Shown: positions 25,461-60,274 of the stretch, piece by piece
Numbering within the stretch: the first letter of the stretch is position 1
How the letters are laid out: each line of letters begins with the position of its first letter
DNA from: Bugula neritina
Taxonomy: Eukaryota > Bryozoa > Gymnolaemata > Cheilostomatida > Bugulidae
Assembly (NCBI GenBank): GCA_964035545.1
Contig: OZ037765.1
Span: forward strand, 2,785,001 to 2,849,000
Length of the DNA: 64,000 nucleotides
Direction of reading: 5' to 3'
Notes under the pieces: model-generated
Database searches by the model: none
What the model was told of the DNA's origin: nothing
Seen by the model: only the letters and a program-made list of their open reading frames with translations
Made by a program: the position numbers and the translations under genes

Positions 25461-28400
25461 ATGGACAGAATACTGTACTTGTGTTTTCACTTATCTTTCT
25501 TTCTAGTTACCGTGTCTATCCCTGCACTAGTACAAGGTATGTTAAATATCATAATTATTATACTTGTAGTTAAATTTAAGAGGATTTTTTCTAATTTAAC
25601 TTAAAAACAAAAAACTGCTGCCCTAGTTGTTTCAAGTTTGCAAAACACTAAACAGAGACTATAGTTTATTTCAATGCTTTCTGTCCTTATATATTATATG
25701 TAAATAAAAAAAAATCTAGCAGATAATAAATACTCTGCTGCCACATATTTTCAGGACTAACCTGTGACTGGACATCAGGTGTGGGTAGACTAGATCCTTA
25801 CATCACATCTGGTAGAATAAAGACTCTCTTTGTAACCAGTGAAGATGAGTGTAGAGCTCAGTGTATGCAGCAGACATCATTTATATGTGCCTCAATAAAC
25901 TACAGAACTGATGATGGAAACTGTCAGCTGTTAGCAGAGAATACTCAGACTGCTACTATTAGTAGTTCTGATAGTCAGTGGAGATACTCTGTTAGACCAG
26001 ACTGTGCTGGTCAGTCTTTGTGACTTTGATAATGCAATGTGGTAGCATAAGTGCATTATATAGGTGTACTAGTTTGGTTTAGAATAAAAAAAAAAAAAAA
26101 ATATATATATATATATATATATATATATATATATATATATATATATATATACATTATATACATATATCAATCAGGCTGCTACTTTTGTCCTGCTATAAGG
26201 ACTACTTAATGGAGATCGATCTAGGATATTCTTTGATTGTTTATAATAGTAAAATTATGTTATACTTCATTTCAACGCGTAATTTAATATGCTGCTTATA
26301 AGGCTTCACAGCTATAGTAATTCTGCATAATAAATTTACTAGCAATACCAGACTAAATCGAAGCACCTTCTAAATCCTTTTTTCAAGAAATAAACAGATT
26401 CCTAAAAATTGTAAATCTGAAAGACTATTTATTAATTATATTTTTGAACAGCAAGTAAAAATGAAGTATGTGTTAATATGTGTTAATATGTTGGGGGTTC
26501 CGTTATTCTGTCTTGCACACGAAATCTTATGTATTTCACAGAAATCTGGCAGCCATGGACAGCTACTAGAGGTTACTATCTAAGCAGTGGAGTAGAGAAG
26601 TACAACCAGACAAGTACATCAGACCTCAGAGACTGTATGAGTTTCTGTTTACAAGATGAACACATCAGTTATAACTGTAGTTCTATAGTGAAGGCAGTGA
26701 GTGGAGATCTATGTGAGATTGTCAACAAGAGATCAGATGGTACTGGAGTGACATCAGATAAGCATCCAGGCTATCAGTACTTTAACCTCCCTCTCTGGTA
26801 TTCAGGTATGAGTAAATCTTTAGATATTTAATTTGTATATCAACGTGTTTAGAGATATGAATTTTCTTATTCTGTAGCGTGAATATATATACAGTATTCT
26901 TAATCTTTATATACATCCTTAATCTTTAACTTTAGGTTGATCTAGTTGTGGTCTGACAACTTTTAAGTAACTTTATTATATATTCCTAAATATAGCAGGT
27001 AGTAGAAATCAAAGATCATAATTAGATATCACTGCAGCACAAGAGATGGCTCTGCACACAGCAAATTTTTACTTTTTTTATTTTTGAAATAGATATGATA
27101 TATGAACACACCTTCATATTGAGTTTTGCACCATAAATTGAATACTAAGGTCAGCTAGCATTACAGCATGGAGAATAGAAAACTTGATTAATATAATATG
27201 GTATGCATATGTCATGATAATGCAAATGTAACAACATATTAATATAATAATGGCATTCTACAACTAACCTAAACTTTTACTAAATAATATATATACAAGA
27301 GTTGTAACATACACAATGATGTGATAAGTAGTTCTAATTAAATAATAATTATTTTGAATGTCATAATAATGCATCATAGAAACTGGACAGATTATAATAA
27401 CATCATATAAATATTAAAAATGTTGATAACTCGAAGCACTTTTGCTAGGCCACTATGAAAATACCTTTATAGAATACTTATTATTGGGTATAAACTATTT
27501 TTCAGATAACTCTGACAGTATAACCAACACAAGGATAATAAACTATGGATCAGCTTTGTATGCTTTCATGTTACTCTTCAACTATAAGATAGAAGCAGAC
27601 GGATATTTGGTTGGCTGGAAGTATATGATTGGTCGTTCTACTGACTACTGTGACTCATATGCTGCTATCTGGAGACAGACAGGAGAAGGTAACTCTGCTG
27701 TATTCAATCTGATTACAGAAACTCTCCTCACACCTGAAGATGTATCTACAGGAGGAATCAGATTCCAGTTTGTACAGAACTCTACAGAAGTAGTTAGAAA
27801 AGGAGACTTTCTTGCTCTGTATGTAGAAGACTTGAATATATCTTTTTGTGGAGGTAACCTCGTCTCATTTAGACCAGATGTAGATGGAGATCTATCAGCT
27901 TACTTACGCAGGAGGAATCCTAACAGAGACAGAGCAGACAGACTCACAGCTTCAGATGTTAACGCAAGACCTAGAGCAGTAGCACTGAGAGCCTACATAG
28001 CAAGTAAATTTCCTTTAGCAAAAAATGTAACACTCTATAAAATGTATTCAATAGTTCTATAAATTATTCACCATATTTTATGCTTATTAGAAATTCTGAA
28101 ATTGGCTGGAGACCCAGTATCTTCTCACACAGATGTTTCGCCAGGGGAAATCAGAATTACATGGGAATTCCCAGCTACTGCACCCAATCAGGAGCTCACA
28201 ACTACACACTTCGAAATAGAATGTTCAGACAACTCCAACTTCAACACAATAATAAGCTCTAAATTAGTCTCTATAGACTACAGAGAGACTGTAATTAGTA
28301 ATCTGAATATACAACAACCTTACTATGCTAGAGTATCTACTGTGAGGAATTATAATGGTGAAGAGTTAATACAAGATGTCTATACAGTCAGCTCTCTATT

Positions 28401-58700: not shown

Positions 58701-60274
58701 CCAGAACCACATTATACTTTATATTATTGTTTAGAAATGTTTTAAATTTTGGTTTTCTGAGAGTTGTAATCTTGAAAATAATTAAAGTTACTTTGGTTTT
58801 CAACTGTAAGTAATAGAAATCTAGCAATTAAACCTATATTTTGAATATTAAGTACATTACCATGCATACAGTATATTGTGCTTTACAGGAATATGGCAGC
58901 CATGGACAGCTACTAGAGGTTACTATCTAAACAGTGGAGTACAGAAGTACAACCGGATAAGTACATCAGACCTCAGAGACTGTATGAGTTTTTGTTTACA
59001 AGATGAAGACATCAGTTATAACTGTAGTTCTATAGTGAAGGCAGTGAGTGGAGATCAATGTGAGATTGTCAACAAGAGATCAGATGATACCGGAGTGACA
59101 CCAGAAGTAAATACAGACTATCAGTACTTTAACCTCCCTCTCTGGTATTCAGGTATGAGTGACTTGAAAACAGTCATATATTTGTACATATAATCTATGT
59201 TTATACAAGATATGCAATTATGATTTTCAATTTTACAAATTATATTTATTTTAATATCATTTATGGAAAATCTTTAATCACCTAAAATCTATAGGCCAAA
59301 CTATATTAATTTGGTGTTTATTTTATAATCAAAATATAAGAATGATTTATAAAAGCTATAATCAATTTCTTGTAGATTGCATAATTTTTTAATATTGTGG
59401 GCTTTTTAGAACTTTTAAGTTAATAAAATTAGCAATGAAAAATATGGATGGCAAATCACAATAAATTGCTTTATATATAGATTTAAAATAGGATAACTTA
59501 GAATATAAATTATGTAAAACATAAACAAGTTGATATTGTTAGTTGTTGAAAAACTGACATCAACAGAACTGAACATTGAAAATATCTGTCATAATATAAA
59601 ACATTATATATAGGGAAATTTCGGGTCGATATGTTGGGATAAATAAAATATGGTTTGATAATTTAATATGCATTTTACATAATATGCTGCATGTAACTAA
59701 TGCCGTTAATTAATTTTGCCCTGCTATGCATGAATGAGATCTTTTGATTTTAGGAATATATAGCATTATTTTTCAGATAACTCTGACAGTACAACCAACA
59801 CAAAGATAATAAATTATGGTTCAGCTGGAATAGCTTTCGTGTTACTCTTCAATTACAAGATAGAAGCAGGCGGATATTTAGTTGGCTGGAAGTATATGAT
59901 TGGTCATTCTACTGACTACTGTGACTCATATGCTGCTATCTGGAGACAGACAGGAGAAGGTAACTCTGCTGTATTCAATCTGATAACAGAAACTCTACTC
60001 ACACCTGAAGATGCATCTACAGGAGGAATCAGATTCCAGTTTGTACAGAACTCTACAGAAGTAGTTAGAAAAGGAGACTTTCTTGCTCTGTATGTAGAGG
60101 ACTTGAGTAACTCTGGTTGTAGAGGTAACCTCGTCTCGTTTAGACCAGCCGTGTCAGGAGATCCTCCAGCTTATATACGTAGTAGTAATTATAACAGAAA
60201 CAGAGTAGACAGACTCACAGCTTCAGATGTTAGACAAGAACCTAGAGGAGTTGCACTGAGAGCCTACATAGCAG
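55798..60274 (+). CDS. Receptor gene D: 5' part only (signal, PAN, PAN-like, beta domain)
   Basis: Four exons: 55798-55870 (signal peptide, one codon shorter than the others), 57861-58118 (PAN/apple, one codon longer), 58889-59152 (PAN-like), 59777-60274 (unnamed beta domain). All are open and in phase, with GT-AG borders; the last ends at a good donor (GCAG|GTGATT). No FN3 or later exon appears in the remaining 3.7 kb. Either the next intron is long and contains the GGGTCATTCC element, or the gene was cut by that insertion. If cut, the product would be a secreted three-domain protein. Exon sequence is very close to A and C. Confidence 0.78.

What the first reader, a model, noticed from the sequence alone, without database searches (positions are those of the whole stretch)
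25461..60274. Tandem array of four modular recognition-type receptors
Four head-to-tail copies of one gene encode signal peptide, two PAN-type domains, an unnamed beta domain, FN3, a second unnamed domain, FN3, a receptor-phosphatase-like juxtamembrane domain, sushi, a transmembrane helix and a tyrosine-rich tail. I know no described family with exactly this order. Clustered, copy-variable receptors with FN3/sushi ectodomains and phosphotyrosine tails are typical of innate-immune or allorecognition loci (known principle: Botryllus and Hydractinia systems use clustered, variable transmembrane receptors). The role here is inference.
Basis: partly seen in the sequence, partly recalled or inferred. 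Interest (0 to 1): 0.88.

Follow-up and report, generated by a model that had tools for sequence, protein, structure and literature searches.

The report
Paired phosphatase and tyrosine-tail receptors
A colonial bryozoan carries a large chromosomal family of closely similar cell-surface receptors, some followed by a phosphatase enzyme and most ending instead in a tail of tyrosine signals, a layout that would suit a self/non-self or immune recognition system but whose use is untested.

Summary
The four head-to-tail copies are real, but not uniform and not the whole story. Copies 1 and 3 are intact spliced genes (748 and 896 aa); copy 1 lacks FN3b and the juxtamembrane (JM) domain, copy 3 lacks sushi, copy 2 is broken in three places, copy 4 runs past the window. 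The genome matches Bugula neritina tzBugNeri2.1. Chromosome 1 (2.81-4.22 Mb) holds 33 PAN1 and 32 beta exon matches. The main finding lies outside the window: 9 further copies (3.95-4.23 Mb), whose beta domains match window-type receptors at 83-90% at best, are followed by tyrosine-phosphatase exons. Of 23 JM exons in these clusters, 14 lead to a tyrosine tail, 9 to a phosphatase, none to both. A chromosome-5 cluster where PAN1 and beta were not found repeats the split 3:3. Catalytic exons are constrained (omega 0.07-0.15); the beta domain of the same gene set is not (0.92) and carries clustered hypervariable sites. Best reading: a recognition family derived from receptor phosphatases, with enzyme and phosphotyrosine-tail arms behind closely similar ectodomains. 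Allorecognition is plausible but untested: no transcripts, no population data, no relatives outside this genome. Observation partly confirmed; interpretation partly supported.

The parts
25461..30395 (+). Copy 1, intact gene, 9 exons, 748 aa: 25461-25536 signal peptide; 25755-26009 PAN1; 26542-26805 PAN2; 27506-28003 beta; 28091-28408 FN3a; 28740-28837 and 29088-29274 X; 29649-29858 sushi; 30055-30395 TM + Y-tail (YEEV, YETT, YEKV, YENT). No FN3b or JM exon found.
   Evidence: spliced read-through with GT-AG sites; exon search; Pfam
32155..40971 (+). Copy 2, all 12 exon types present but broken: TAG at 35397-35399 in beta, 2-base frame loss after 36981 in FN3a, GG instead of GT donor at 37342. 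FN3b about 38302-38415 + 39139-39348, JM about 39619-40005, sushi about 40131-40331, TM + tail 40528-40971 with duplicated YEEV repeat.
42831..51111 (+). Copy 3, intact gene, 11 exons, 896 aa: 42831-42906 SP; 43199-43453 PAN1; 44602-44865 PAN2; 46258-46755 beta; 47089-47406 FN3a; 47684-47781 + 48128-48314 X; 48668-48780 + 49242-49452 FN3b; 49628-50020 JM; 50834-51111 TM + shortened Y-tail. No sushi exon found.
55798..60274 (+). Copy 4, first four exons only (55798-55870 SP, 57861-58118 PAN1, 58889-59152 PAN2, 59777-60274 beta); FN3a to Y-tail lie beyond the window at C1:2851518-2855643.
46258..46755 (+). Beta-domain exon (copy 3), with clustered hypervariable sites: 25 of 179 alignment columns above 1.5 bits across 32 chromosome-1 copies, against 1 of 91 in PAN1 (32 copies) at the same dS.
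49628..50020 (+). JM exon = Fn3_PTPRU domain with basic RKKR-S motif (furin-like; motif meaning recalled).
   Evidence: Pfam E 2.1e-8; RPTP-mu 8a16 5.3e-6
50834..51111 (+). TM + tyrosine tail exon, the part in whose place the sister cluster at 3.95-4.23 Mb has another TM exon and PTP exons.

Best explanation
The window holds part of a large cell-surface recognition family of the bryozoan Bugula neritina, related to receptor tyrosine phosphatases (RPTPs). One closely similar, locally hypervariable ectodomain (PAN-PAN-beta-FN3-X-[FN3-JM]-[sushi]) is joined to one of two cytoplasmic parts: phosphatase domains (9 copies, 3.95-4.23 Mb) or a tail that in 18 of 19 examined cases holds 3-6 tyrosines (copies at 2.81-2.89 and 3.24-3.47 Mb, including the window). 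Shown: architecture, phase-1 exon modules, mutual exclusion of the two cytoplasmic types, intact catalytic motifs in the exons seen, constraint on the phosphatase and loosened or diversifying evolution of the beta domain. Inferred: when ectodomains on one cell or between neighbouring cells bind a ligand (possibly each other), the tails are phosphorylated by a Src-type kinase and recruit SH2 proteins, while the phosphatase receptors with a similar binding face remove those marks; the ratio and match of the two arms sets fusion/tolerance against rejection/attack. Contact-dependent self/non-self recognition is the use I consider most likely, microbial recognition next.
For: Copy number: 33 PAN1 and 32 beta exon matches on C1 2.81-4.22 Mb, plus 1 and 1 on C2 and 3 and 4 divergent ones on C3. 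Mutual exclusion: 0 PTP exon matches in the fetched A (114 kb) and B (150 kb, to 3.385 Mb) stretches, 0 Y-tail matches in the fetched 20 kb of one phosphatase copy; 23 of 23 JM exons on C1 2.8-4.2 Mb lead to Y-tail (14) or PTP (9), none to both. Recurrence: C5 2.19-2.32 Mb, 6 of 6 JM exons resolve, 3 PTP and 3 Y-tail, one of these tails with a stop, although PAN1 and beta searches list nothing there. Catalytic motifs: SAGVGRTGT in 8 of 8 active-site exons seen, WPDHG in 7 of 7 (exons picked because they matched). Internal control: in phosphatase copies omega is 0.15 (active-site exon, n=8) and 0.07 (WPD exon, n=7), but 0.92 for beta (n=9) and 0.69 for PAN1 (n=9), dS 0.07-0.12 throughout. Ectodomain overlap: the best Y-tail match of each phosphatase beta exon is 83-90%, the best other phosphatase copy 84-91%. 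Exons of copies 1 and 3 are 89-96% identical (exon 6: 73%), introns 55-62% against 43-51% for shuffled intron 2, and synonymous divergence drops inside the beta exon core: exon-limited homogenisation such as gene conversion. Two window copies are intact.
Against: No expression, ligand, polymorphism or phenotype was tested. The positive-selection signal is weak: beta segment 149-179 omega 1.36, p 0.044 uncorrected for 6 segments (not significant after correction); 6 single beta sites at p<0.1 uncorrected; PAN1, PAN2 and FN3a have none. Relaxed constraint is not excluded, and sushi is more variable per column (22 of 70, n=15), though at dS 0.50. Phosphatase copies do not form one clade in the beta tree, but a single clade is not rejected (AU p 0.13); in the PAN1 tree 8 of 9 fall together with one A copy, more clustered than in any of 500 shuffles, and one clade is not rejected (p 0.49). 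So free exchange between the two arms is not shown. In B, one tail stops before any tyrosine and two lack YxxV motifs. The ninth phosphatase copy (3951140) shows a second-domain exon but no active-site exon. Two of the 23 JM exons are broken (3410300 fragment with TAG, 3447609 with TAA). 10 further JM exons (C3, C5 1.28-1.34 Mb) found neither tail nor PTP; the PTP search scored only 150 of 285 candidates, and PTP absence in B beyond 3.385 Mb rests on such lists.
Confidence: 0.5

Rival explanations
1. Pattern-recognition or symbiont-facing receptors: the PAN and beta domains bind microbial or symbiont surface molecules, and the Y-tail/phosphatase arms tune phagocytosis or symbiont tolerance.
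For: PAN, sushi and FN3 are common in binding ectodomains (recalled); B. neritina can host the bryostatin-producing symbiont Ca. Endobugula sertula (PMC11480708 passages); copy number, a broken copy and module loss fit birth-and-death immune families (inference).
Against: Much of the beta domain is strongly constrained (segment 21-40 omega 0.11); no ligand evidence.
Confidence: 0.25
2. Developmental or neural adhesion receptors: an RPTP-mu-like homophilic adhesion family that expanded by tandem duplication, with Y-tail forms as phosphatase-less modulators, no recognition of non-self.
For: JM domain is homologous to the RPTP-mu membrane-proximal domain; RPTP-mu is homophilic (recalled); fn3 stretches.
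Against: About 30 closely similar clustered copies with local hypervariability, module drop-out and broken copies are unusual for conserved adhesion RPTPs (recalled); omega near 1 in beta while the catalytic part is constrained.
Confidence: 0.15
3. Gamete or sperm recognition family, for spermcast mating or avoidance of self-fertilisation.
For: Fast-evolving clustered surface receptors can serve gamete recognition (recalled).
Against: No tissue data; cytoplasmic signalling arms are not required by this idea.
Confidence: 0.1

Closest known systems
R2B-type receptor tyrosine phosphatases (RPTP-mu/kappa)
   Same: fn3 stretches, Fn3_PTPRU juxtamembrane domain with RKKR-S motif; sister cluster has PTP first- and second-domain exons.
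   Different: No MAM or Ig domain above cut-off; two PAN domains and an unnamed beta domain instead; window copies have a tyrosine tail and no phosphatase; about 30 clustered copies.
Botryllus fester family / fester co-receptors (FF/FcoR)
   Same: Colonial animal; large multigene family (over 37 and 53 loci reported) of transmembrane receptors with sushi, the co-receptors with tyrosine-motif tails (PMC12065747 passages).
   Different: Botryllus ectodomains are Ig + sushi; signal arms are ITIM, hemITAM or core motifs on partner genes; here the counter-arm is a phosphatase behind a closely similar ectodomain. Polymorphism and phenotype unknown here.
Hydractinia Alr allorecognition family
   Same: Clustered variable transmembrane receptors in a colonial animal (recalled).
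   Different: Ig-like ectodomains (recalled), no PTP arm known to me; no homology tested.
Vertebrate paired receptors (SIRP, KIR, FcR-like)
   Same: Closely similar ectodomains joined to different signalling parts in gene clusters (recalled).
   Different: Vertebrate pairs use ITIM against charged TM + ITAM adaptor (recalled); here phosphatase domain against tyrosine tail.

Membership tests
R2B-type RPTP | MAM and Ig N-terminal domains | tested here: not met
   No MAM match and only sub-threshold Ig-like matches (Ig_ILCR1, Ig_VWA7) in Pfam scan of copies 1 and 3
R2B-type RPTP | membrane-proximal FN domain with basic cleavage motif | tested here: met
   PF23144 E 2.1e-8, RPTP-mu 5.3e-6, RKKRS present; cleavage itself not tested
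R2B-type RPTP | cytoplasmic PTP domains | tested here: not met
   Window (Y-tail) copies: 0 PTP exons in the A and B stretches held. In the sister cluster: second-domain exon in 9 of 9 copies, first-domain active-site exon in 8 of 9
Paired receptors | shared ectodomain with different cytoplasmic signalling parts | tested here: met
   beta best matches 83-90% between the two types, cytoplasmic parts mutually exclusive at 23 of 23 JM exons
Paired receptors | opposing signalling outputs | not testable with these tools
   needs cell assays
Allorecognition receptor locus | alleles or haplotypes segregate with fusion/rejection | not testable with these tools
   one assembled haplotype only
Allorecognition receptor locus | high within-species polymorphism | not testable with these tools
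   the alternate haplotype named in PMC11480708 is not held here
Botryllus FF/FcoR | Ig-type ectodomain | tested here: not met
   no Ig match above cut-off
ITIM receptors | [ILVS]xYxx[ILV] in the tail | tested here: inconclusive
   present in 7 of 19 tails examined; the other 12 do not meet the -2 or +3 position or have no such tyrosine
ITAM receptors | paired YxxL/I motifs at fixed spacing | not tested
   no pattern count was run

The most novel reading that the evidence does not exclude
This is a first molecular candidate for a bryozoan allorecognition system, and it works by a design I have not seen described: closely similar, locally hypervariable ectodomains carry either a phosphatase or a phosphotyrosine substrate tail, so that the outcome of recognition is set by whether phosphatase and substrate receptors are brought together at the contact. 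The split has been kept or re-evolved in at least two gene clusters on different chromosomes.
Probability: 0.25. Interest if true: 0.92.

Novelty: new variant of a known kind. Interest (0 to 1): 0.74.

Why it matters
Bryozoans are said to show allorecognition (PMC8278520, one passage), but I found no bryozoan gene for it: the draft B. neritina genome paper mentions only weak similarities to Alr1 (PMC7576161 passages), and the listings I saw (several showed only the top 10-15 of more papers) named none. If right, the loci make the question directly testable by segregation and knock-down, in a colonial phylum beside cnidarians and tunicates, and would give a paired-receptor design with the enzyme and its substrate tail as the two arms.

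Tried and rejected
Supporting only: AGA/AGG codons of COX1 fall mostly where I recall serine, though a few fall where I recall glycine. The GH6 cellulose-synthase marker gave nothing, but its control rang nowhere, so it is uninformative.

Structure of the beta domain: AlphaFold2 on 4 window sequences gave mean pLDDT 30, unusable, so no fold search was run. PDB sequence search gave only jacalin-type fragments at E 0.02-0.63 and none with a 6-row profile; no lectin claim is made.

Search of the large protein database was not possible, so the distribution outside this genome is unknown. Pfam on six ORFs of the first 17 kb gave one sub-threshold match.

One-clade tests of phosphatase copies did not reject a single origin, so I do not claim repeated switching within C1. 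The phosphatase gene was recognised by exons; I did not model it whole.

Rows left out: exons under 85% coverage; C2 and C3 copies in entropy and omega counts; one divergent beta copy (3346718), and stop-bearing beta, PAN1 and PAN2 copies.
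Full report
WHAT THE WINDOW IS. The window is C1:2785001-2849000 of a 215.8-Mb genome in 295 contigs. Contig lengths C1 35640107, C2 33575671, C3 32418041 and a 15248-base contig with mitochondrial genes equal chromosomes 1-3 (35.64, 33.58, 32.42 Mb) and the 15.25-kb mitochondrion of Bugula neritina tzBugNeri2.1 (216.00 Mb, 320 scaffolds; PMC11480708, passages seen). The small difference in total and number is unexplained. So this is a colonial cheilostome bryozoan.

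THE FOUR COPIES. Exon boundaries were read from the sequence. Each whole-domain exon begins and ends in phase 1, and the two split domains (X, FN3b) are phase 1-0/0-1 pairs, so whole domains can be lost without breaking frame. That has happened: copy 1 (25461-30395) lacks FN3b and JM, copy 3 (42831-51111) lacks sushi, and both still splice into uninterrupted proteins of 748 and 896 aa. Copy 2 keeps all exon types but has a stop in beta (35397), a two-base frame loss in FN3a (after 36981) and a lost splice donor (37342). Copy 4 starts at 55798 and ends outside the window at C1:2855643. Pfam finds in copy 3 PAN_1 (two stretches), fn3 (two stretches) and Fn3_PTPRU above cut-off, and in copy 1 PAN_1 (two stretches) and Sushi; no fn3 match in copy 1; beta and X match nothing. 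The JM domain matches RPTP-mu in the PDB (8a16, 5.3e-6).

THE FAMILY. Searches of the same genome list 37 PAN1 exon matches (33 on C1, 1 on C2, 3 on C3) and 37 beta matches (32, 1, 4). On C1 they form three groups: A 2.81-2.89 Mb (6 copies, + strand, four of them in the window), B 3.24-3.49 Mb (18 PAN1 matches, one a fragment; 17 on the - strand), C 3.95-4.22 Mb (9 copies, + strand). The tail query lists TM/tyrosine-tail exons in A and B and none on C1 beyond 3.9 Mb.

THE PHOSPHATASE ARM. The copy at C1:3980615 has no such tail. After its JM exon come a different TM exon and stretches reading ADETRVKLKV...ANANYIQ, WRLIHDSGTSTIVMLTN, KCSVYWPD, QWPDHG, IIHC and SAGVGRTGT, then a second domain: a tandem PTP receptor. 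I recognised this gene by its exons; small linking exons were not modelled. PF00102 hits give 9 second-domain exons and 8 first-domain active-site exons in group C (again finds 8). Eight of eight active-site exons and seven of seven WPD exons that I read are intact; they were picked as matches. The ninth gene (3951140) shows no active-site exon. Local searches found no PTP exon in 114 kb of A or 150 kb of B (to 3.385 Mb), and no Y-tail in the fetched 20 kb of C. Pairing each JM exon with what follows on its strand before the next JM exon: A 5 of 5 and B 9 of 9 Y-tail; C 9 of 9 PTP. Two of the B JM exons carry stops.

THE SPLIT RECURS. Fn3_PTPRU has 46 exon matches in the genome. On C5 2.19-2.32 Mb six JM exons resolve into 3 PTP and 3 Y-tail genes, one of these tails with a stop. 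PAN1 and beta searches list nothing on C5, so the front of those receptors differs or is too diverged. The C5 tail and the C1 tails are weakly alike (E 2.6e-4 to 9e-3, 29-45% identity). A further RPTP at C5:8.52-8.53 Mb has a Y-tail exon 37 kb downstream. In C3 7.1-8.1 Mb and C5 1.28-1.34 Mb, 10 of 16 JM exons had neither PTP nor known tail, and one of the 6 PTP calls is 38 kb away; this is provisional because only 150 of 285 PTP candidates were scored. The divergent C3 copies (PAN1 at 4038945 and 4080207; beta 33% identical to the C1 type) are followed on their strands by PTP exons, which suggests that the phosphatase form is ancestral and the Y-tail form derived. That is inference.

EVOLUTION. 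With 32 C1 copies each and equal dS (0.16), PAN1 has 1 of 91 columns above 1.5 bits of entropy and beta 25 of 179. Other exons: PAN2 10 of 95 (n=16), FN3a 4 of 107, sushi 22 of 70 (n=15, dS 0.50), so beta is not the only variable part. Beta's substitutions gather mainly at columns 12-19, 118-122, 131-147 and 152-169, with near-invariant stretches between. Segment 21-40 has omega 0.11 (p 5e-15 for constraint); segment 149-179 has 1.36 (p 0.044, uncorrected for 6 segments) (30 rows). Within the phosphatase genes, omega is 0.15 and 0.07 in catalytic exons but 0.92 in beta at similar dS. Exons of copies 1 and 3 are 89-96% identical (exon 6: 73%), their introns 55-62% against 43-51% for shuffled intron 2, and dS falls to 0.03-0.13 in the middle of the beta exon. 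That pattern fits gene conversion limited to exons. The beta tree mixes groups A, B and C, with one supported mixed pair (3438129 Y-tail with 3953458 PTP, 95/95); in the PAN1 tree 8 of 9 PTP copies fall with one A copy. A single PTP clade is not rejected by either (p 0.13 and 0.49).

TAILS. In 19 tails examined, YEEV occurs in 13, YEK[VL] in 10, CYENT in 10, YxN in 13, and an ITIM-like [ILVS]xYxx[ILV] in 7. The YEE[VM] repeat is itself duplicated in some copies, up to five times at C1:2878794. YEEV resembles a Src-family SH2 site and YxN a Grb2 site (recalled). One tail (3353042) stops before any tyrosine, one (3361366) has a different sequence and one (3370207) lacks YxxV.

HOW IT MOST LIKELY WORKS. 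Shown: one ectodomain type, two mutually exclusive signalling parts, intact enzyme motifs where read, local hypervariability. Inferred: ligand or homophilic contact gathers both arms; kinases mark Y-tails, phosphatase receptors erase the marks; the balance sets the response. Rivals are microbial or symbiont recognition, adhesion/development, and gamete recognition.

KNOWN SYSTEMS. The Botryllus review (PMC12065747, passages) describes over 37 new fester-family loci and 53 co-receptor loci, the latter with ITIM, hemITAM and core tyrosine motifs and Ig/sushi ectodomains, and names CD45-like receptor phosphatases among the expressed signalling proteins. The bryozoan family shares the principle, not the ectodomain, and its phosphatase sits behind the same kind of ectodomain. 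The listings of searches named no such bryozoan family; I saw only the top of several (15 of 37, 15 of 21390, 12 of 79 and 10 of 27 papers), I did not read the Flustra genome paper (PMC13326412, listing only), and the library lacks most subscription papers and all preprints.

Noticed in passing
C3:4046001-4049000 (L071) and C3:4068501-4071500 (L072): Two divergent PTP-type copies on opposite strands have WYDHDIP where WPDHGVP is usual in the catalytic loop, while SAGVGRTGT is kept.
   Followed up: no
C1:3951140-3966840: The first of the nine PTP-type copies shows the second-domain PTP exon but no active-site exon of the first domain: possibly a phosphatase-dead receptor, or a missed exon.
   Followed up: no
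C1:2858168-2861291 (L009, L010): Orphan 3' half gene: FN3b, JM, TM and Y-tail without any front exons found.
   Followed up: no
C1:2878794-2879414 (L011, L012): Tail exon with five tandem YEEV/YEEM repeats before a stop, and a further tail match beyond it: variable number of tyrosine motifs per receptor.
   Followed up: partly
window 43743-44169 and 45476-46109: Inverted repeats, with a 196-base perfect tandem duplication at 45572-45963, in introns of copy 3.
   Followed up: no
window 50355-50700: Long CA/GT microsatellite in the interval where copy 3 lacks its sushi exon.
   Followed up: no
C6:8.02-8.43 Mb, C3:7.6-8.14 Mb, C5:0.49-0.53 and 1.31-1.51 Mb: Further groups of PTP-domain exons: the genome seems rich in clustered phosphatase genes.
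   Followed up: partly
C6:11174072-11175412 (L034); C17, C196, C65: A similar-scoring copy of mitochondrial COX1 on C6, and COX1 genes of other apparent origin on small contigs, suggesting a nuclear mitochondrial insert and cobionts.
   Followed up: no
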